A program made the position numbers and the translations under genes. Positions 4,406 to 30,695 of a stretch of DNA of 64,000 bases are shown here, piece after piece. The DNA is taken from the IMG/VR virus record IMGVR_UViG_3300020174_000004, positions 1-64,000 of that record; one strand, written 5' to 3'. The DNA comes from a virus. Position 1 is the stretch's first letter. Each line of letters begins with the position of its first letter. The notes below the pieces were generated by a model that saw nothing but the letters and a program-made list of their open reading frames with translations, was not told the DNA's origin and searched no databases.

Positions 4406-4819
4406 ATGTCTTATGATAACCCGTGGCTATATAAAAACAAAATATTTGATTCCGAAGATATTGACAATTATTATGGTTATGTTTATATTATAACAAATAT
4501 GACTAATAATATGAAATATATTGGAAAAAAATTCTTTTGGTCAACAAAATATAAAACCATAAAAAAGAAAAGAAAAAGATTAAAGGTTGAATCCAATTGG
4601 AAAGAATATTATGGATCTTCTGATATTCTTAATGAAATAGTAAAAGAGATTGGAGAACATAACTTTAAAAGAGAAATACTCAGGTTATGTAAAACAAAAG
4701 GTGAATGTTCTTATTTTGAAGCCAAAGAACAATTTCAATCCGATGCAGTCATCAGTGAAGAATATTATAATAAATGGATATCTGTTAGAGTTAGGCAGAC
4801 ACATTTAAAATTGGATTAA
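4406..4819 (+). CDS. GIY-YIG nuclease-like protein
   Basis: A 137-residue protein starting at ATG 4406, preceded by AAGGAG at 4391-4396 (the upstream TTG at 4400 is too close to that site). Residues 24-27 (GYVY) and 37-40 (KYIG) form the GIY...YIG signature of the homing and repair endonuclease fold, and a WKEYYGSS segment matches the family. There is no DNA-binding C-terminal module, unlike true homing enzymes. From memory, similar stand-alone proteins with an N-terminal SYDNPW-type motif are conserved in T4-like phages, which suggests a resident phage nuclease rather than a selfish insertion. AATAAATA at 4373-4380 is a 7/8 match to a late promoter box. Confidence 0.75.
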   Translation: MSYDNPWLYKNKIFDSEDIDNYYGYVYIITNMTNNMKYIGKKFFWSTKYKTIKKKRKRLKVESNWKEYYGSSDILNEIVKEIGEHNFKREILRLCKTKGECSYFEAKEQFQSDAVISEEYYNKWISVRVRQTHLKLD

Positions 4820-4821
4820 TC

Positions 4822-5379
4822 ATGCATTTAGAAAAATATCTCGAATCAATAGTTAAGAACTATGATTTAGACGAAACATATCGTTATGTTGCTAATTTTG
4901 CTTTTTCTGCAAGACTAACTTACACTACTGAACAACCAGGTGCTATTAAGGTTGGTGATTTAAATGATGAAGCAAGAAATAATTTTTTAAATATAATAAA
5001 AAACGATATTAATATTAAAGAAAATATTGATATAATAAATTTTGCAAATGATTTTTCTCATAATGTTGGTTATGGAAAAATGTTTAATTTAAATTTAAAA
5101 AAATATTATTCCGGATATAATGAAAATCAAATATTAGATTTAAATAGATATAATATTTTACTTGATAGATATCATATTATATTAAAAAATGAAAATCAAA
5201 ATATTCATACTTTTGATGAAGGTAGTTTTGATTTAAAACAAGGTGAAATGTGGTGGTATAATATAAAAATGCATTATTCAAATCATAATGTATTTGAAAA
5301 TGAAAAAATTCATTTAATTATAGATGTTCTTCCATATAAAAATTATGATTTATTTAAATTAATAGAAAGTTATAATTAA
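4822..5379 (+). CDS. Degenerate Asp/Asn beta-hydroxylase-like protein
   Basis: A 185-residue protein homologous to its downstream neighbour: both share QPGAIK-G, DRYHI(V)(I/V)L, G-(M/I)WW(Y/F)N and IHL(I/L)IDVLP blocks, the cupin core of aspartyl/asparaginyl hydroxylases. The second iron-binding histidine region is kept (H151 in MHYSNHN), but the first (HYDPG in the partner) is replaced by hydrophobic sequence, and the 2-oxoglutarate-binding arginine appears as K162. By family knowledge it should not bind Fe(II) normally. It may be a regulatory partner of the intact copy or a decaying paralogue. The gene is extremely AT-rich and ends directly at the next start. Confidence 0.65.
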   Translation: MHLEKYLESIVKNYDLDETYRYVANFAFSARLTYTTEQPGAIKVGDLNDEARNNFLNIIKNDINIKENIDIINFANDFSHNVGYGKMFNLNLKKYYSGYNENQILDLNRYNILLDRYHIILKNENQNIHTFDEGSFDLKQGEMWWYNIKMHYSNHNVFENEKIHLIIDVLPYKNYDLFKLIESYN

Positions 5380-6122
5380 TGTATTATGATGAACAAATAA
5401 ACAAAATTATAGATTATTATGATGAAAAAGATGATTTTAGAGTATTATGTGCACAAGCTTTTTCAGACATGTTATCAAGAGGTAAATCTATAAAACAACC
5501 AGGTGCAATAAAAATTGGTAAAATACCCGATGATAAAAGAATTACACTTTTAAAAATAATTCAACCACACTGGTGGGATCTTAATAAAAGTAGACAAAAT
5601 AAATATAAAGCTCAGGTTAATACAAAAAATATAGCTTTAAGGGTTCCTGAAAAATTAAATACAGAATCGGAATCAAAAGTTTGGTCTAGAAGAAGTATTA
5701 ATTCTCCTATTACACAAAAATATTATAGAGAATTAATTCCATATTTTAATTTTCTAGAAACTTTTTGTAAAATGCTAGGAACCGGTGAACTTGGAAATGT
5801 AACAATAACCAGTTTAAATTCTCACAGCGATGTAAAAACTCATTATGATCCTGGATGTTATTATATGTTAAGAGATAGATATCATGTTGTTCTTAGTTCT
5901 GAAGGTAGTAGACAGGTTTTTGAAGAAGATGAATACTTGTTTGAAGAAGGTGATATTTGGTGGTTTAATACACGAGTAAAACATTCTGCTTATAATGATA
6001 GTGATAATCCAAGAATTCATTTATTGATAGATATTCTTCCACAAAAAAATGTAAGAATTCAAGAATCATTAAATGAAAGAATGTATGATCATGATCCAAT
6101 TTTTATTAATAAAGGCGTCTAG
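5379..6122 (+). CDS. Aspartyl/asparaginyl beta-hydroxylase-like dioxygenase
   Basis: A 247-residue putative Fe(II)/2-oxoglutarate dioxygenase. The first iron histidine is H155 (THYDPG), followed by DRYHVV at 166-171; the second is H202 (VKHSAYND), with R212 (PRIHLLID) placed to bind the 2-oxoglutarate carboxylate. This is the AspH-type arrangement, which uses two histidines and no acid. Substrate unknown: in phages such enzymes could hydroxylate a phage or host protein side chain. It starts one base before the end of the degenerate paralogue, so the pair is likely coupled in translation and arose by tandem duplication. Confidence 0.72.
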   Translation: MYYDEQINKIIDYYDEKDDFRVLCAQAFSDMLSRGKSIKQPGAIKIGKIPDDKRITLLKIIQPHWWDLNKSRQNKYKAQVNTKNIALRVPEKLNTESESKVWSRRSINSPITQKYYRELIPYFNFLETFCKMLGTGELGNVTITSLNSHSDVKTHYDPGCYYMLRDRYHVVLSSEGSRQVFEEDEYLFEEGDIWWFNTRVKHSAYNDSDNPRIHLLIDILPQKNVRIQESLNERMYDHDPIFINKGV

Positions 6123-19707: not shown

Positions 19708-22700
19708 TTAATTATTTTTACCCACTGTTAAACTAAATGATGATGACAAATCTCCTTCATTGGGTGGTACGTTTGACATTCCTCTTGCAATAGATGGAGC
19801 AATATCAATTGAAAAAGGTAATGAAGTTTGTGGTTTAACAGATTGTTCAGAACCAGGTAATTGTTTTTGATCTATTAAATTACGATCCATTATACCAGGA
19901 TTAGGTAAATTTTGGATTACAGGTCTTGGTTGTTCTGGTGGAATTTTAGGTGGAGCTTTTGGCATCATTTCATATGGGCTCACTTGAGCTGAACCTACAT
20001 TAGTATCTTGACCTGTTTCAATTTTAGCAAGTGATTCATTTGTTAAAACTCCTGGTAGTTTGCCAGGTAATTCTGGTGGCGGAAGTTGAGCTTGAACTGC
20101 TCTTGCCATTCTAGCATCTTCCATCGCTGCAATTGCATCAAATCTTTTTGCTTTTCCAGTTGTTCTTGCTGTTACATTATTTTTTTCAGCAAGTTGTGCT
20201 GGTGTTCCTTCTTGTTTTGGTGCTTCTTTTCTTGCTTTTTCAATAGCCGCTCTTTTTGCATCTTTTGCCATTTCAGAATCAAAATCAAAATAATCTAAAG
20301 CAGAAGGATCTTTTTCTGCCGTTTTTAAAACCCCACGCATATCCAAACGTTCAAAAGGACTTTTTTCTCTTAATCCATATTTAGAAAGTGATTCTGCATC
20401 TAAACCGCCTGGTTCATTTACACCTTCAAAATCCGGTCTTACCGGTGGTAATGGCATACCACCAGTTCTTCCACCTGATCTGCCTCTTTTTGTTGATACT
20501 CTTTTAGCAGCTTCTCTTTGCGGAGTTCGATCTCCACCTTTAGCTTGCCATTGTTTCATAAGAGCATCAGCTCTAATCATATCTGCTGGATTTCCAGATT
20601 CATTATATTTTTCCCATGATGCTGTGACATCAGCTTTAGTTATTCCACTGCCACCTGCTCCAACACTACCAGTAGTTCCACGCCCAACACCTGAAGCACC
20701 ACCAGGAGACATGCCAGTCGCGCGAAGAATATTTTGTAATGCGCCGGGAAGTGTTCCACCACCAGTTTCAGTAGAGCCTCTTGCCGGCATATTTGCTGAT
20801 CCAGCACCAGCGCCAGTGCCAGTTCCAGCAGTTCTAGCATCAGCAGTATTACCAATATTTGTTTGACCTTTACGTCCAGCAGCCCATGCTTCTCTAATCC
20901 ATTGTGAACCACCCCAAACAGCAGCTTTACCAAATCCAACATGAATTCTAGATGGACCCATATAACCGTTTCCATGGCCAACGCCAGTAGCACCTAATGA
21001 AACAGCAGTAGCTACGAATTTTGCCATAATAGCACGATCTTGTGGATTGTTTGCTGAAAGTCTTCTTCCACCAACAAAAAGATCTAAATCAGCAGCATTT
21101 CCTTGATCATGTCTATGAGAACCAACAGCACCTGGTGCACCTGGCATTCTTTGTCCACCAGAATAAACTTTTACTGTTACACCTGCTGCATTAGCTGCTT
21201 GTTGTAGGATACTAACAAGTCTTTGACTTAAAGTGCCTCTTCTTGTTCCAGCAGCTTTTCCTTGCAATTGCATAACACTTCCAGAATCAGTACCCGTTGC
21301 AGTTCCAACGCCTGCTCCACCACCTGGTGCTGACTGTGTATTTGTGTATGACATTGCGCCGCCACCCATTATTCCAGATGGAGTACTTGCAATTGATGGT
21401 GTTGACATATTGCTCATATTAATGCCAGCAGCACCAAGTATTCCGCTTAAAGCTGCTTGTGGTGTAGTTACTGAACCACCAGCAGATGAAGTTGACGCTG
21501 GAGCAGCATTTGAAATAAATGTTGGAGCAACTCCAGCATTTGCTGTAGCGCCACCCATAAATCTTTGGTATGTGCCTGATTTATAAACAGACCATGCATT
21601 AAATCCTTGCTGCCTATAAACTCTATAAGCAGCTTTGGCATTTACTCTTGGATCAAATAATTGTTCATTGGCATTTATACCAAATTCTCTTCTACGAGCC
21701 GGACCTAAACGCCCAATCATATTGATTTGCCATAATCCATATGAATTATCACCAGTTGATGCATTTGGATTATGAGCGTCAGATCTTCCACTAGATTCAG
21801 CCATAGCAATTGCTGCCATAGTAACTGATTCTTGTTGATTAAATCCCGCACCTTTTGCTAAAGAAACAAGTTCAGCAAAACCTAATTTTCTTGAAGTTAT
21901 GGCTGGAGCTCTAGCTCTTTGTGAAGATGAAGAAGTAGTAGTCGGAGCTCCTATACCTAAAGAATCTGCTACAGGATCAATGTTTCTAACCAATGATCTA
22001 GCAGGATCATTAGATATTCTTGAACCTATATCAATTTTTTCACCAGTTTTTTTAACTGTTATAATTCTTTTTAACTTATCATATGTAACATCTCTAGAAC
22101 TTAAATTTCTTTTTTTCATTTCTTCTTGAATAAGCTTCATAGCTTCATTTCTAGAAGTATCACCAGCTCTTCTAATATTAGAAGCAGCCGAATCTCTCAT
22201 TGCTTTTTTAGTTTCAGTTTGTTCTTCTTTTGAACGAGGCCCTTGTCTAAATGCTTCAAATGCAGCAATTGCTAGTCCTAAAGGGCCTGCTAATCTACCT
22301 ACCAATTTAAGTGCTGGAAGTAATGAAGCAATACCTGCGGCAAGACCAGCAGTTTCTGCTATTCCAGATCCTCCTCCACCTTTTCCTAAATTATCAGCAA
22401 TGCCTAATAATATTTTATTAGTATTGCTTTGATGTTTTACCTGTGTTGCTAATAAATCATTAGAAATAGCAACTGCTGAAGCAACTTGTCCTAGTAACTG
22501 GTTTGATCTTTCAATTCCTTTGGCCAATCCTGATATAGTAGGTTCTACAGACATTGTGCCACCAGATGATCTTGTAGCTTTTTTAGCATCTGCTGGAGAA
22601 TCATCTAATGAACCAAGTCTACTTCTAAAAGCTGACATTAATCCACCAGCAACAGCGGCAGCACCTACTCCTGCCGCTGTAGCTCCAGTCCCGCCAACTT

Positions 22701-22716
22701 TTGGTACTTTAACCAT
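19708..22716 (-). CDS. Large tail protein with transglycosylase and M15-like peptidase domains
   Basis: A 1002-residue protein in the tape-measure/hub position right after the tail chaperones. Residues 1-270 are Ala/Gly-rich and helical, with a hydrophobic segment near 110-150. About 275-390 is a lytic transglycosylase domain with the likely catalytic E307 (AMAESSGRSD) and SYGLWQINMIG. About 480-610 is a D,D-peptidase domain of M15/VanY type with H536-xx-G-xxx-D543 (HDQGNAADLD) and H592 (RIHVGFG) as zinc ligands. The rest is Pro/Gly/Ala-rich linker. The protein would cleave both glycan and peptide parts of murein during DNA entry. Start overlaps the upstream stop (TAATG). Confidence 0.82.
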   Translation of the reverse strand: MVKVPKVGGTGATAAGVGAAAVAGGLMSAFRSRLGSLDDSPADAKKATRSSGGTMSVEPTISGLAKGIERSNQLLGQVASAVAISNDLLATQVKHQSNTNKILLGIADNLGKGGGGSGIAETAGLAAGIASLLPALKLVGRLAGPLGLAIAAFEAFRQGPRSKEEQTETKKAMRDSAASNIRRAGDTSRNEAMKLIQEEMKKRNLSSRDVTYDKLKRIITVKKTGEKIDIGSRISNDPARSLVRNIDPVADSLGIGAPTTTSSSSQRARAPAITSRKLGFAELVSLAKGAGFNQQESVTMAAIAMAESSGRSDAHNPNASTGDNSYGLWQINMIGRLGPARRREFGINANEQLFDPRVNAKAAYRVYRQQGFNAWSVYKSGTYQRFMGGATANAGVAPTFISNAAPASTSSAGGSVTTPQAALSGILGAAGINMSNMSTPSIASTPSGIMGGGAMSYTNTQSAPGGGAGVGTATGTDSGSVMQLQGKAAGTRRGTLSQRLVSILQQAANAAGVTVKVYSGGQRMPGAPGAVGSHRHDQGNAADLDLFVGGRRLSANNPQDRAIMAKFVATAVSLGATGVGHGNGYMGPSRIHVGFGKAAVWGGSQWIREAWAAGRKGQTNIGNTADARTAGTGTGAGAGSANMPARGSTETGGGTLPGALQNILRATGMSPGGASGVGRGTTGSVGAGGSGITKADVTASWEKYNESGNPADMIRADALMKQWQAKGGDRTPQREAAKRVSTKRGRSGGRTGGMPLPPVRPDFEGVNEPGGLDAESLSKYGLREKSPFERLDMRGVLKTAEKDPSALDYFDFDSEMAKDAKRAAIEKARKEAPKQEGTPAQLAEKNNVTARTTGKAKRFDAIAAMEDARMARAVQAQLPPPELPGKLPGVLTNESLAKIETGQDTNVGSAQVSPYEMMPKAPPKIPPEQPRPVIQNLPNPGIMDRNLIDQKQLPGSEQSVKPQTSLPFSIDIAPSIARGMSNVPPNEGDLSSSFSLTVGKNN

Positions 22717-22898
22717 TATTGATTATTCCTTGTTGCTTCTTCTTGTTCTGTCATATGTTTATTAAGCAAATCAATATATAAATCTCTTTCAAATGGTATA
22801 AGGTTTTCAATTTCACTAATAGAATATTTATGGTGCTGAGCCAGTATGAATATACTCATATAGTATGATTCAAGATTGTTGTGGCTCAGCGCAACATA
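22716..22898 (-). CDS. Frameshift extension of the tail-assembly chaperone (GpT-like)
   Basis: Open frame in -1 relative to gp26, entered after the heptamer T TTT TTT at 22904-22898. It adds 60 residues, giving a 295-residue fusion with the 235 residues before the slip. The frame has no stop between the slippery site and its end. An internal ATG at 22859 could give a 47-residue protein, but no Shine-Dalgarno is seen there. The sequence KYSISEIENLIPFERDLYIDLLNKH resembles the second part of tail chaperones upstream of tape-measure genes (lambda G/GT logic). The stop overlaps the next start. Confidence 0.8.
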   Translation of the reverse strand, partial: YVALSHNNLESYYMSIFILAQHHKYSISEIENLIPFERDLYIDLLNKHMTEQEEATRNNQ

Positions 22899-22904
22899 AA
22901 AAAA
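22835..22904 (-). promoter_or_regulatory. Programmed -1 ribosomal frameshift signal
   Basis: Reading the minus strand: heptamer T TTT TTT (22904-22898) in phase with the gp26 codons (gaT TTT TTT), a seven-base spacer, then a perfect nine-pair stem GCTGAGCCA (22890-22882) and TGGCTCAGC (22843-22835). The loop can fold further (ATACT with AGTAT). Slippery site, spacer and stem all meet the textbook requirements. The zero frame stops nine bases after the heptamer. Confidence 0.85.
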
Positions 22905-23602
22905 TCATTTAAAGTTCTCAAATAAATTTTTCTTTCACTTCCTAATGAATTTTTATATTCAATAGCATGTTCCATATGTGGAATATTTCCTAAAAAATCT
23001 CCAAGTTTATCAAGAATTTTAATACCTAGACTATTCAAAAATTCATCTAATTCTTTATTATCAAAATCTTTTGTTGTATAATTTTTTTCTTTATCATAAA
23101 TTCTATCAACGCACTTTGCAATGAGTGGAATAAATGAATCTTCAACTTTTGATTTATTTAAAAATTCTTTATCTGATAAGATTGAAACTGTAGGATATTT
23201 TAATATAATTCCCATATCATCATTAATCTTAATATTCATTTCTTCTTTTTCAGGATATTTTAATTTTACATTTTTAAGTTCAATTTTAAAATCATATTCT
23301 TTTTCATCTTCATTATCAATATATTTTAATTCAATTACATCTTGAATAGAATTTGCTCTAATCATAAGAAAGAAATATTCCATATCAAAAATTGGAATTG
23401 ATTCCACATCAAATCCATCTTCCAAACAACAATTTTGAACAATTTGTTTTACTGATAACATAATATCAGCATCATCTTCAGAAGCTTTACCCATAAGAAG
23501 AATCTTTTCTTCTTTAACAAGCATAGGTCTAAATTTTAATAATTTTTTATTTGAAGGCGCTTCAATTGTAAAAATAGGATAATCAATTTTAGGTAATGGC
23601 AT
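22886..23602 (-). CDS. 26: gp26-like baseplate hub / tail-assembly chaperone
   Basis: A 238-residue protein matching T4 gp26: PLPKIDYPIFTIEAPSNKKLLKFRP, VKEEKILLMGK, QNCCLEDGFDVESIPIFDMEYFFLMIRANS. ATG 23602 is chosen because GGAG lies eight bases before it; the in-frame GTG at 23611 touches that site. Its last codons contain the T7 slippery run, so a fraction of ribosomes should make a longer fusion. In this position (before the tape measure) the pair behaves like lambda GpG/GpGT chaperones. Confidence 0.85.
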   Translation of the reverse strand: MPLPKIDYPIFTIEAPSNKKLLKFRPMLVKEEKILLMGKASEDDADIMLSVKQIVQNCCLEDGFDVESIPIFDMEYFFLMIRANSIQDVIELKYIDNEDEKEYDFKIELKNVKLKYPEKEEMNIKINDDMGIILKYPTVSILSDKEFLNKSKVEDSFIPLIAKCVDRIYDKEKNYTTKDFDNKELDEFLNSLGIKILDKLGDFLGNIPHMEHAIEYKNSLGSERKIYLRTLNDFFMLR

Positions 23603-23617
23603 AGATTTCACTCCATT

Positions 23618-24406
23618 TTAAAATGCTGTTGAGCCAGCTCCATATGTATTTGCTGGTGTTGGTATATTAGCTTGACTTGTGGTAGGTTTAATGGTATTTG
23701 TTAAAGATTGAAGAACACCATTAGAAGAAATTGTGTTTTGTGGAACATTAACATTAGCCATAGCATTAACATTTACATTATCAAGTTTCCATTCTTTATA
23801 CGTAAAGTTAACATTTAATCTCATTAAAGAACTTCTATTTGACCATGATAAATCAATTTCTGATAATGAAATAGGAAAAGCTTTTAATAGTCTAAATATT
23901 TGAACGGGATTTTCTCCAGAATCATCATAGATAATTATCTCAATATCAGAAGCATAATAATTTTTATATGTTAATTCATATGATGCTAAACCGGAATTTT
24001 GAGTATTTTTATTTGGTGCATTATTATTTGATCCAGGAGAAAAATTAAAAATATAATTCATCCATGAATAAAAGAAAGAATAAAGATCACCATTTTTATC
24101 TGCAATAAATGAAATTCCTATATCAGAAAAAGTAGCATTAAATGGTTTCTTTTCAGAAGGCCCAATTCCATATCTAAAAATATTAGCTGATGCAAATGCA
24201 ATACCAGGAGTACGAATTCTATCTCCTCTAAATGTAATTAGATCAGAAAGTTGCCTTCCAAAATTTTGTACAGTTGCTCCATTATTATCAACATTACCGC
24301 CAAGTAATCCAGGAGGAGTTACTATATTAACTAGATACTTGGAACTATTTAAAGTTCCAGTAGCATTAATATGTGATTTGAAGTTATTAATATTAAATCC
24401 TGGCAT
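23618..24406 (-). CDS. Baseplate tail-tube initiator-like protein (gp54/gp3 fold)
   Basis: A 262-residue tube-fold protein. The pattern of a (R)TPGI strand, FNATFSDIGISFIADKNGDLYSFFYSWMNYI and the later IEIIIYDDSG...FPISLSEIDLSW...LNVNFTYKEW is shared by T4 gp19, gp3 and gp54. Proximity to gp26, gp48 and gp4 favours gp54 (tail-tube initiator), but the gp3 tail terminator remains possible. The Ser/Thr/Pro-rich tail after residue 210 looks disordered. It follows the upstream gene with a one-base overlap. Confidence 0.7.
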   Translation of the reverse strand: MPGFNINNFKSHINATGTLNSSKYLVNIVTPPGLLGGNVDNNGATVQNFGRQLSDLITFRGDRIRTPGIAFASANIFRYGIGPSEKKPFNATFSDIGISFIADKNGDLYSFFYSWMNYIFNFSPGSNNNAPNKNTQNSGLASYELTYKNYYASDIEIIIYDDSGENPVQIFRLLKAFPISLSEIDLSWSNRSSLMRLNVNFTYKEWKLDNVNVNAMANVNVPQNTISSNGVLQSLTNTIKPTTSQANIPTPANTYGAGSTAF

Positions 24407-25470: not shown

Positions 25471-26379
25471 ATGGCTGGATTAGGAAAAATAGCAACTTGG
25501 TTTGGATTGGGAGCTGCGGGTGGAGCAGTTGCTGGTGCTGCAGGAACTGCTGCTGGTATTGCAGCGGTAACTGCAATAAACAAACTTGCTAGTGCTAGTT
25601 CTTTTAATCTTTCTGGTGATTCACATTTTCCTCAAGATTTAGAAAATTATAAACATTATATATCTTTTCAATTTTCAGAATATAAAAGACGATCTATATT
25701 TGATAGAGCATTTTATAACGGAATTGGCTCAATTAGACTTCCAATGCCTGCAAATCTTGTAGATCAACAAAAAGTTGATTACGAAACACAAGGCAATTTA
25801 TTAGTTGGGGCAGGTGTTGAATATGGTTTAAAACAAGGAAGCCAAGCAACAGCCGCAACGGGCGCCTTAAGTGGACAAATTGCTGGCGCTGTTCCACTTG
25901 TAGGCAGTGCGCAATCTCTTCTTAGTAGTTCTGGAGGTGCACAGGCTTTACAAGTATATGGACTAGCAGTAAATCCATTTTTAACTGTTTTATTTAAATC
26001 TCCTACTTTTAAAAGACATTCTTTTGCATGGAGATTATCTCCAAATGATCCTAAAGAATCTACTTTAATAAACAATATATTAACAAAATTTAGATATCAT
26101 ATGCTTCCAGCAAAAGCCGATTCAGTAGTAGGAGCTATTTTAAAATATCCAGATATATGTAATGTAAAATTACACCCAGATGATAATTGGCTTTATAAAT
26201 TTAAACCCTGTGTTGTAGAAAGCATATCAATTAATTTTTCACCAAATGGTAATCCAGCTTTTTATTCTCAAACAAATGCTCCTTCAGATGTTCAATTTAC
26301 TATAAATCTTTTAGAAATTGAATACTGGTTAAAAGAAGATTTTGCCGGTGGTCCACTTGGGTTTGGAGTAGGATTCTAA
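25471..26379 (+). CDS. 48: Baseplate tail-tube cap gp48
   Basis: A 302-residue homologue of T4 gp48, which with gp54 forms the platform on which the tail tube grows. It has a Gly/Ala-rich N-terminus (GAAGGAVAGAAGTAAG), SFQFSEYKRRSIFD, a second hydrophobic Gly/Ala region near 125-160, and the typical FKRHSFAWRLSPNDPKES and CVVESISINFSPNG-PAF blocks. First gene of the rightward baseplate operon; overlaps gp53 by one base. Confidence 0.82.
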   Translation: MAGLGKIATWFGLGAAGGAVAGAAGTAAGIAAVTAINKLASASSFNLSGDSHFPQDLENYKHYISFQFSEYKRRSIFDRAFYNGIGSIRLPMPANLVDQQKVDYETQGNLLVGAGVEYGLKQGSQATAATGALSGQIAGAVPLVGSAQSLLSSSGGAQALQVYGLAVNPFLTVLFKSPTFKRHSFAWRLSPNDPKESTLINNILTKFRYHMLPAKADSVVGAILKYPDICNVKLHPDDNWLYKFKPCVVESISINFSPNGNPAFYSQTNAPSDVQFTINLLEIEYWLKEDFAGGPLGFGVGF

Positions 26380-28488: not shown

Positions 28489-29874
28489 ATGGCGAGAATA
28501 GGCGAAAAATGGGTATGGTTTGATGCAAAAGTTATAAACGTCAAGGATCCACATAAATCCGGGCGGGTGCAGATTCGTGTCAAAGGTTATCATGATGATG
28601 AAACTAAGATTCCTGATAAGGATCTTCCATGGGCCCAAGTATTAATGCCTGTTACTTCAGCATCAATAAATAAGGTTGGTGGTTCTCCAACGGGGCTTTT
28701 ACCCAATTCTAGAGTAATTGGTTTTTGGTATGATGCTAATGATATGAGAATTCCATTTGTTATGGGATCTTATGTAAGTGCTGGTGAATTAGATAATAAT
28801 GGAAAAACACAAGGTGGAAAAACGCCTCCTAAAGAAAAAACTAATTCTGGAAATCCTTTAAATCGACCAAAAGGAAAAGATGATGCTGGCGGCGATAGAA
28901 ATCCAAAACCTTTACCAAATGCAATAGAAAAAAATAATGATCGTAAAGATGATACTTCTCTTGAAAAGAAAAGTATAACTAAAGTTGCTGCTGAAGGATT
29001 AAAAGCTCTAGATCTTAAAACAATTGGATCATTGGCTGGTGGTTTAAAAAAAGATGTACTTAATACAATTTCCAGTATTGATCCTTCAAATATAAGTGGG
29101 TCAATACCCAAAGCATTAACATCATTATTAAAAATTGATGCTTTATCTTCTCTTGGAAATGCAGCCGGTATATTTAATATGGCATCAACCGCTTTACAGG
29201 GGTTAATGTCTCAAGCAATTAATGATAAAGGTGGAACACAAAATGCCATAAATAATGTACTTAAAACTTTATTAACATTTATTGAATCAGAAGAATTTGA
29301 AAAATTAACTGAAGAAAATAAATTAATTGCATTAAAAGCAATAGAACAATTAACAAATAATCCAACAACATCACCTATTGATTCTACAATAAATTCAACA
29401 CAGATTTTAAGTTCTCTTACTAATGGAATTTCTAGTTCTAGTAATCCAAGTCAAGTAATTGATGCAGTTATAGAGCAAGGAATGAATCAAATATCATCAA
29501 GTTTTTTAAATATTCTTAATGGTAGAAATTTAACTGGTAATGTAATGAATACTTTGATTGGTAATCTTAATTCTATGTTATCATCTACTGGGCTTCAAGC
29601 AATGCTTGGTTCCGGTTTAAATGTTAATAATATACTTTCAGAAGCAACTAAGTTACTTGGTTCTACTGGAAGTAATATGATAAAAATAGTAACATCAAAT
29701 TTACCATCAACGGTTTTAGATGAAAATAAAATTAAAAAACCAATAGAAGATGCATTAAAAAATTTTGCAAGAGTAAAAAAGAAACAAGAACAAAACCCAA
29801 TGGCTACTAGTTTAAGTGAAAACATACAAAATGCTATAACAGCAATTACTGATTCATTTGCACAATTAGATTAG
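28489..29874 (+). CDS. 5: Baseplate hub gp5-like, OB-fold portion without lysozyme
   Basis: A 461-residue protein. Residues 1-100 are the gp5 OB domain (FDAKVINVKDPHKSGRVQIRVKGYHDD, LPWAQVLMPVTS, PNSRVIGFWYDANDMRIPFVMGSY). A charged Pro/Lys linker and a long, mostly helical, Ser/Asn-rich region follow. No T4-type lysozyme domain is seen and the beta-helix spike is in the next gene. The murein-cutting role seems moved to the 1002-residue tail protein. In T4 one gp5 chain carries all three parts. Confidence 0.8.
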   Translation: MARIGEKWVWFDAKVINVKDPHKSGRVQIRVKGYHDDETKIPDKDLPWAQVLMPVTSASINKVGGSPTGLLPNSRVIGFWYDANDMRIPFVMGSYVSAGELDNNGKTQGGKTPPKEKTNSGNPLNRPKGKDDAGGDRNPKPLPNAIEKNNDRKDDTSLEKKSITKVAAEGLKALDLKTIGSLAGGLKKDVLNTISSIDPSNISGSIPKALTSLLKIDALSSLGNAAGIFNMASTALQGLMSQAINDKGGTQNAINNVLKTLLTFIESEEFEKLTEENKLIALKAIEQLTNNPTTSPIDSTINSTQILSSLTNGISSSSNPSQVIDAVIEQGMNQISSSFLNILNGRNLTGNVMNTLIGNLNSMLSSTGLQAMLGSGLNVNNILSEATKLLGSTGSNMIKIVTSNLPSTVLDENKIKKPIEDALKNFARVKKKQEQNPMATSLSENIQNAITAITDSFAQLD

Positions 29875-29882
29875 GATTTATA

Positions 29883-30695
29883 ATGACTACAAAAGAAGAT
29901 GATCCTAGAAAACCAGAAACCACGTTTGATGGGGAATATCCACATATTCAATCTTTTCAAACATGGGGTGGACATACTTTAATATTTGATAACACACCCG
30001 GAAAAGAAACTATTCGCTTATCACACGGTGGAAACACCAACCCAGGTTCATATATAGAGTGGTCTGTTAATGGCAAAAAAGTAGAAGTTGTTAGAGATAA
30101 TTCTTTTAATTATACAAAAGGTGGTCAAACAACTTCTATTGATGGCGCAACTGATACTAAAGTAGCAAGCCATAGTAGAACAAGTGTAAGTGGCGGATCT
30201 CATAAAGAAGTAGCTGGAAAAGAGTCAAAAGCTGTTAAAGAAGGATCTACAGTACTAGCGGGTGGAACACAATCAACTGGGACTTTATCAGCATCGCCTG
30301 GTGGTGAGCATGATGATTTTACTTCAGGCAATAAAACTTCTGTTCATTCTGGTAATATGAATACCATGATTGAAGGTGATAATGTTTTAGTAGTTAATGG
30401 CAATCAAGTCTTTCAAAATAAAGGTGAAAGACTTGATACAATTCAAGATGGTAATTATTCAATATCAGTTGATGATGGAAACTTTAAAATAAAGTGTAAG
30501 AAATTTATTATTGAAGCTGAAGAAATTGTTTTTGGTGCAACACAAAAGAATATAACATTAGACAGTCAAAAAGCTCAGGTTATAATAAAATCTAAAAAAG
30601 GTATTATTACTAAGAGCGATATATTTGGAACATCCCTTGAAAAGAATCCTCCAGTTTTACCTGGTGGAAAAGACGGCAACGAGCCATTAAAATAA
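29883..30695 (+). CDS. Central spike protein (gp5 C-terminal beta-helix-like)
   Basis: A 270-residue protein that looks like the spike half of gp5/VgrG. The N-terminus has WGGHTLIFDNTPGKETIRLSH, typical of the start of the triple-stranded beta-helix. Short repeats with Gly/Ser/Thr and alternating hydrophobics follow (TSVSGGSHKEVAGKESKAVKEGS, NTMIEGDNVLVVNGNQVFQNKG). The end has CKKFIIEAEEIVFGATQKNITL. It probably trimerises below the gp5-like OB protein as the membrane-piercing needle. No PAAR-like tip is visible in this chain. Confidence 0.75.
   Translation: MTTKEDDPRKPETTFDGEYPHIQSFQTWGGHTLIFDNTPGKETIRLSHGGNTNPGSYIEWSVNGKKVEVVRDNSFNYTKGGQTTSIDGATDTKVASHSRTSVSGGSHKEVAGKESKAVKEGSTVLAGGTQSTGTLSASPGGEHDDFTSGNKTSVHSGNMNTMIEGDNVLVVNGNQVFQNKGERLDTIQDGNYSISVDDGNFKIKCKKFIIEAEEIVFGATQKNITLDSQKAQVIIKSKKGIITKSDIFGTSLEKNPPVLPGGKDGNEPLK

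What the first reader, a model, noticed from the sequence alone, without database searches (positions are those of the whole stretch)
22835..22904. Complete -1 programmed frameshift cassette joins gp26 to a hidden GpT-like extension
At the end of the gp26-like gene stand an in-phase T7 slippery heptamer, a seven-base spacer and a perfect nine-pair stem. The -1 frame stays open for 60 codons to the start of the large tail protein, while the downstream frame has no ribosome site of its own. This is the lambda G/GT chaperone logic in a T4-type tail operon, and it would be missed by ordinary gene calling. It also predicts that T4 gp26 relatives are tail-assembly chaperones.
Basis: partly seen in the sequence, partly recalled or inferred. 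Interest (0 to 1): 0.88.

Follow-up and report, generated by a model that had tools for sequence, protein, structure and literature searches.

The report
Frameshift-made tail chaperone in T4-like phage
In this T4-like virus a ribosome slip at the end of one tail gene very probably makes a second, longer version of a tail-building helper protein; the signal is real and conserved in well over a hundred related viruses, but the trick and its presence in T4-like phages have been published before.

Summary
On the minus strand the gp26-like gene ends with an in-phase T TTT TTT (22904-22898), a 7-nt spacer and a perfect 9-bp stem (22890-22882 with 22843-22835) that contains the zero-frame stop. The -1 frame runs 60 codons to a TAA that overlaps the ATG of the next, tape-measure-like gene. 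It is not chance. In 164 of 166 relatives that cover the site an in-phase T TTT TTY leads into the same -1 extension; the other two have T TTT TTG and one imperfect run. The stem covaries (about 15 compensatory changes on a tree) and exceeds a synonymous-codon null, but only in part of the family: it is absent from most T TTT TTC cyanophages. The extension is the "gp51 / baseplate hub assembly catalyst" of cyanophage records. gp26 has a tail-assembly-chaperone-like N-terminal fold (HK97 chaperone, Z 7.9). T4 gp51 is a whole gp26 domain plus this extension, so T4 encodes separately what this phage makes by slippage. That reading of T4-like chaperones, including poly-T slippery sites, was published by Vladimirov, Gautam and Davidson (Virology 2022). 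This is a well-supported new member of a known kind; the covarying stem may be the only addition.

The parts
22886..23602 (-). gp26-like gene (TAC-N, short chaperone), 238 aa; upstream SD-like GGAG
   Evidence: ORF and codons; PF12322 T4_baseplate E 4.9e-48; phrog_150 E 8.3e-52; AlphaFold2 pLDDT 88.9, residues 1-86 match HK97 tail assembly chaperone 2ob9 Z 7.9
22898..22904 (-). slippery heptamer T TTT TTT, in phase with gp26 codons (GAT TTT TTT ATG)
   Evidence: in-phase T TTT TTY in 164 of 166 relatives covering the site
22891..22897 (-). 7-nt spacer
   Evidence: where the stem is present the 5' arm starts 7 nt after the heptamer
22882..22890 (-). 5' arm of the 9-bp stem, GCTGAGCCA; contains the zero-frame stop TGA
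   Evidence: fold z -3.9; covariation; synonymous null
22886..22888 (-). zero-frame stop codon TGA of gp26, inside the stem
22844..22881 (-). 38-nt loop, predicted to hold a small inner hairpin; contains an in-frame ATG (22859-22857) of the extension, no SD
22835..22843 (-). 3' arm of the stem, TGGCTCAGC
22716..22898 (-). -1 frame extension (TAC-C, gp51-like), 60 codons plus TAA; fusion product would be 235 + 60 = 295 aa
   Evidence: phrog_634 baseplate hub assembly catalyst E 3.7e-21; 566 phage records match at E up to 10; single copy in own contig
19708..22716 (-). downstream 1002-aa protein with SLT lysozyme-like domain, probable tape measure (client of the chaperone); ATG overlaps the extension's TAA
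   Evidence: a gene just downstream of the extension is called tail tape measure protein in Caulobacter phage Cr30 and tape-measure-like in phiM12

Best explanation
This is a -1 programmed ribosomal frameshift that makes two forms of a tail assembly chaperone in a T4-like phage. Most ribosomes stop at the UGA and give gp26 (TAC-N, 238 aa). A minority slip back one base on U UUU UUU, helped by a 9-bp hairpin 7 nt downstream, and read 60 more codons to give a 295-aa gp26-gp51 fusion (TAC-NC). By analogy with lambda G and GT, the short form would coat, and the long form would recruit tube subunits to, the tape measure protein encoded by the next gene. Shown by computation: sequence, phase, conservation, covariation of the stem in part of the family, TAC-like fold of the N-terminal domain, and domain architecture of T4 gp51. 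Inferred: that slippage occurs, its efficiency, and the chaperone action.
For: In-phase T TTT TTT, 7-nt spacer, 9-bp stem and open -1 frame. In-phase T TTT TTY with a -1 frame encoding the same extension in 164 of 166 relatives covering the site, one more with T TTT TTG. Covariation in the T7/stop+9 group: 83.8% of cells paired against 19-36% when slid, 39 cells changed on both sides against 14 in shuffles; about 15 compensatory changes by parsimony; excess pairing beyond the protein constraint in 43 of 67. The extension lacks a ribosome site. It matches phrog_634 and the C-terminus of T4 gp51, whose first 201 residues match the gp26 Pfam family. gp26 N-terminal domain resembles HK97 tail assembly chaperone (Z 7.9), 3fgx (8.4) and YqbN (6.7), above unrelated rows at 2.9 or less. 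Next gene is tape-measure-like. Matching published model for T4-like phages.
Against: No protein or reporter data. The stem is missing or different in most T TTT TTC members (2 of 36 keep 8 or more pairs) and in about a third of the T7/stop+9 group, so it cannot be essential everywhere. RNAalifold found no consensus structure over all 61 sequences. One relative (L159) has only GTTTTC. Foldseek E-values to HK97 chaperone are not significant (2.3), and Z about 8 is at the level the tool's note calls middling.
Confidence: 0.92

Rival explanations
1. The extension is a separate small gene (gp51), started on its own ATG at 22859 by translational coupling or re-initiation, as annotated in cyanophage genomes; the T-run is codon usage for Phe-Phe.
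For: Cultured relatives annotate gp51 as its own CDS. The window has an in-frame ATG at 22859. Coupled genes can lack an SD, and the downstream gene mostly lacks a strong one too (30 of 121).
Against: 43 of 129 relatives have no ATG in extension codons 3-28, and 1 of 129 has an SD-like motif before any start there. The extension is conserved from the codon after FF, upstream of any usual start. The heptamer keeps its phase nearly everywhere. T4 gp51 is a gp26-like domain fused to this extension.
Confidence: 0.06
2. Slippage is real but the stem does something else, for example masks the ATG at 22859 or controls the downstream gene or mRNA decay.
For: The stem is absent in much of the family while the heptamer is constant; the ATG lies in the loop.
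Against: Fixed 7-nt distance to the heptamer wherever the stem exists, the usual place of a frameshift stimulator; the ATG is not conserved while the stem is.
Confidence: 0.12
3. A compositional accident: runs of T and chance open frames in an AT-rich genome.
For: Other in-phase heptamers near stops with some open -1 frame exist in the window (4 besides this one among 120 long stop-to-stop frames).
Against: Conservation across loci down to about 31% gp26 identity, covariation and homology of the extension.
Confidence: 0.01

Closest known systems
Tail assembly chaperones of T4-like phages: gp26 (TAC-N) and gp51 (TAC-NC), Vladimirov, Gautam and Davidson, Virology 2022, 566:9-15
   Same: Same protein family (PF12322), same C-terminal extension, poly-T slippery site near the end of TAC-N, position before the tape measure gene.
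   Different: T4 itself encodes the two forms as two separate genes, 26 and 51, on opposite strands; here one gene plus slippage. The covarying hairpin could not be checked against that paper, which is not held.
Lambda G / GT frameshift (Xu, Hendrix and Duda 2004 family of tail chaperone frameshifts)
   Same: Short form and -1 frameshift long form, just upstream of the tape measure gene; chaperone logic.
   Different: Lambda slips on G GGA AAG (own knowledge); sequence homology between gp26 and gpG or the extension and gpT was not tested here.
Vandenendeviridae tail assembly chaperone frameshift (phage Adele, PMC12846349)
   Same: Conserved -1 frameshift at a poly-T run joining TAC-N to a downstream ORF usually annotated as a separate hypothetical gene.
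   Different: GTTTTT motif and different virus family.

Membership tests
-1 programmed ribosomal frameshift | In-phase X XXY YYZ heptamer near the zero-frame stop | tested here: met
   T TTT TTT at 22904-22898, phase checked; conserved
-1 programmed ribosomal frameshift | Conserved -1 frame coding sequence continuing past the stop | tested here: met
   Extension in the -1 phase in all 166 relatives covering the site; from a T TTT TTN run in 165, without a perfect run in L159
-1 programmed ribosomal frameshift | Stimulatory structure 5-9 nt downstream | tested here: met
   9-bp stem at 7 nt; z -3.9; covariation. Only part of the family has it
-1 programmed ribosomal frameshift | Fusion protein actually made | not testable with these tools
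   needs reporter or mass spectrometry
Tail assembly chaperone of T4-like phages (gp26/gp51) | TAC-N homologous to gp26 (PF12322) | tested here: met
   E 4.9e-48, 164 bits against cut-off 24.5
Tail assembly chaperone of T4-like phages (gp26/gp51) | TAC-C extension homologous to the end of gp51 | tested here: met
   phrog_634 hit by both the extension (E 3.7e-21) and T4 gp51 residues 147-246 (E 1.2e-23); alignment
Tail assembly chaperone of T4-like phages (gp26/gp51) | Lies directly upstream of the tape measure gene | tested here: inconclusive
   Next gene is 1002 aa with an SLT domain; a gene in about this slot is called tape measure in Cr30 and phiM12, but no profile names the window protein a tape measure
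Lambda-type TAC fold (HK97 tail assembly chaperone-like) | Fold of TAC-N | tested here: met
   VIA-align Z 7.9, 84 residues, rmsd 3.5 to 2ob9; 8.4 to 3fgx, 6.7 to 3klu; next unrelated row 2.9. Foldseek E not significant, so moderate
Lambda-type TAC (G/GT) | Long form binds tail tube protein, short form binds tape measure | not testable with these tools
   biochemistry needed

The most novel reading that the evidence does not exclude
The gp26/gp51 frameshift site of a large part of the uncultured T4-like phages has a so far undescribed covarying hairpin stimulator whose 5' arm contains the zero-frame stop codon, and it was lost or replaced in the T TTT TTC cyanophages, so two ways of tuning the short/long chaperone ratio exist in one family.
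Probability: 0.4. Interest if true: 0.4.

Novelty: new member of a known kind. Interest (0 to 1): 0.33.

Why it matters
It indicates that the frameshift-made tail chaperone is the rule in the sampled T4-like phages outside the T4 group, and that the small gp51 genes in the cultured records checked are very probably not genes of their own but the second half of a frameshift product. It also makes the old question of what T4 gp26 and gp51 do directly testable: gp51 looks like the permanently fused long form.

Tried and rejected
RNAalifold on all 61 T7/stop+9 sequences gave no consensus structure, because lineages without the stem are mixed in; the named-structure count was used instead. A stem at the same place in the T TTT TTC cyanophages (S-PM2, S-RSM4, P-TIM68) was looked for and not found. 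PDB sequence search with the gp26 profile gave only chance matches (E 0.02, capping enzymes). The paper by Vladimirov et al. is not held and was seen only through citing papers. A comparison with lambda G and T sequences was not made. The bait sequence was written by hand to resemble the gp26 family; every locus it returned was confirmed by tblastn and inspected for its own slippery site, but the set is not an unbiased sample. Other in-phase heptamers in the window were set aside; the one at 4804 precedes an ordinary next gene starting at 4822.

Full report
Observation. The finding lies on the minus strand. The gp26-like gene (ATG 23602 to TGA 22886, 238 aa) ends AAT GAT TTT TTT ATG TTG CGC TGA. 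The heptamer T TTT TTT (22904-22898) is in the phase required for a -1 slip, the spacer is 7 nt, and GCTGAGCCA (22890-22882) pairs perfectly with TGGCTCAGC (22843-22835) around a 38-nt loop. The zero-frame stop is inside the 5' arm. After the slip the frame encodes YVALSHNNLESYYMSIFILAQHHKYSISEIENLIPFERDLYIDLLNKHMTEQEEATRNNQ and ends in TAA 22718-22716, one base of which is shared with the ATG of the next gene. The 73 nt after the heptamer fold at -21.8 kcal/mol, z -3.9.

Conservation. tblastn with gp26 found 556 phage records and with the extension 566 (loose E limit). 154 loci from uncultured viruses and 14 from cultured phages were read. Two contigs end before the site. Of the 166 others, 164 have an in-phase T TTT TTT or T TTT TTC followed by a -1 frame encoding the same extension; Rhizobium phage RHph_Y68 has T TTT TTG and one contig (L159) only GTTTTC. 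In the script the site of L085 was first misassigned and then set to its T7 at 1495. L002 and L003 are 100% identical to the window in gp26 and not independent of it. The search used a hand-written family-like bait, so the sample is not unbiased.

The stem. In 129 distinct sequences the two arm positions were compared without gaps. All 9 pairs are kept in 41 and 8 or more in 57. They concentrate in the T TTT TTT members whose stop lies 9 nt after the heptamer (46 of 67 with 8 or more), and only 2 of 36 T TTT TTC members have it. In 61 sequences of the T7/stop+9 group, chosen without regard to the stem, 83.8% of cells pair against 19-36% for slid controls, six pairs have changes on both sides and 39 cells are changed on both sides against 14 in shuffles. 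On a gp26 tree parsimony gives about 15 compensatory changes, 28 one-sided changes that keep pairing, and 58 breaks. With the extension protein fixed and codons redrawn from gp26 usage, pairing exceeds the null at p < 0.05 in 43 of 67; this null ignores the zero-frame constraint on the last codons before the stop. The stem is therefore a real RNA feature of part of the family and not a universal one.

Separate gene or fusion? In all 14 cultured records read, the extension or most of it is annotated as a separate small CDS, mostly called gp51 or baseplate hub assembly catalyst, and none is annotated as joined. But the coding signal starts right after the Phe-Phe of the slip, 43 of 129 relatives have no ATG in codons 3-28, and an SD-like motif before any start there occurs in 1 of 129, against 115 of 129 for gp26 and 13 of 387 in background stretches. 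The downstream gene also often lacks a strong SD (30 of 121), so absence of SD alone is not decisive; the phase and the upstream conservation are.

What the proteins are. gp26 matches PF12322 and phrog_150; the extension matches phrog_634. T4 gp26 and T4 gp51 both match PF12322, and gp51 residues 147-246 also match phrog_634. So T4 gp51 is a gp26-like domain with the extension fused in frame. T4 genes 26 and 51 are on opposite strands, so no frameshift can join them. The AlphaFold2 model of the window's gp26 (pLDDT 88.9) has its first 86-95 residues matched by 3fgx (Z 8.4), HK97 tail assembly chaperone 2ob9 (7.9) and YqbN 3klu (6.7), well above unrelated rows; Foldseek alone is not significant. 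The own contig has one PF12322 gene and one extension. The next gene carries an SLT domain; in Cr30 and phiM12 a gene just downstream, after one small ORF, is annotated as tape measure or tape-measure-like.

What is known. PRFect (PMC10274946) cites Vladimirov, Gautam and Davidson (Virology 2022) for T4-like phages that carry a short and a fused long chaperone gene instead of a frameshift. Phage Adele (PMC12846349) cites the same work for poly-T frameshift sites in TAC-N genes of T4-like phages. That paper is not held; from memory its abstract names T4 genes 26 and 51 and says that frameshifting is conserved in several T4-like groups. A 2010 review lists both T4 proteins as hub assembly chaperones (PMC3004832). 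The covarying hairpin may be undescribed; this could not be checked.

Verdict. A real, well-supported -1 frameshift site making the two forms of a T4-like tail assembly chaperone; new member of a known kind. Slippage and chaperone action remain inferred.

Noticed in passing
window 28489-30695 (+): The gp5-like hub/spike appears split into two adjacent ORFs: 28489-29874 matches the N-terminal part and 29883-30695 a later part of phrog_430, with the profile's middle part matched by neither, while an SLT lysozyme-like domain sits in the tape-measure-like protein 19708-22716.
   Followed up: partly
window 19708-22716 (-): Besides the SLT domain, the tape-measure-like protein holds a motif SHRHDQGNAADLDLF that looks like a peptidase M15-type metal site; Pfam did not call it.
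   Followed up: no
window 23618-24406 (-): A tail-tube-like protein (phrog_45, Phage_TTP_2) lies directly upstream of gp26, next to DNA end protector and head closure genes, separate from the divergent baseplate operon at 25471 onward.
   Followed up: partly
window 4822-6122 (+): Two adjacent ORFs (185 and 247 aa) share a similar layout (QPGAIKxG ... DRYHxxL ... WWxN), possibly a tandem duplication.
   Followed up: no
L009, L010, L015, just after the heptamer: These relatives have an alternative stem, GCTAACNCA with TGCGTTAGC, starting at the same 7-nt spacing but with the 3' arm 5 nt earlier: a possible shifted version of the hairpin.
   Followed up: no
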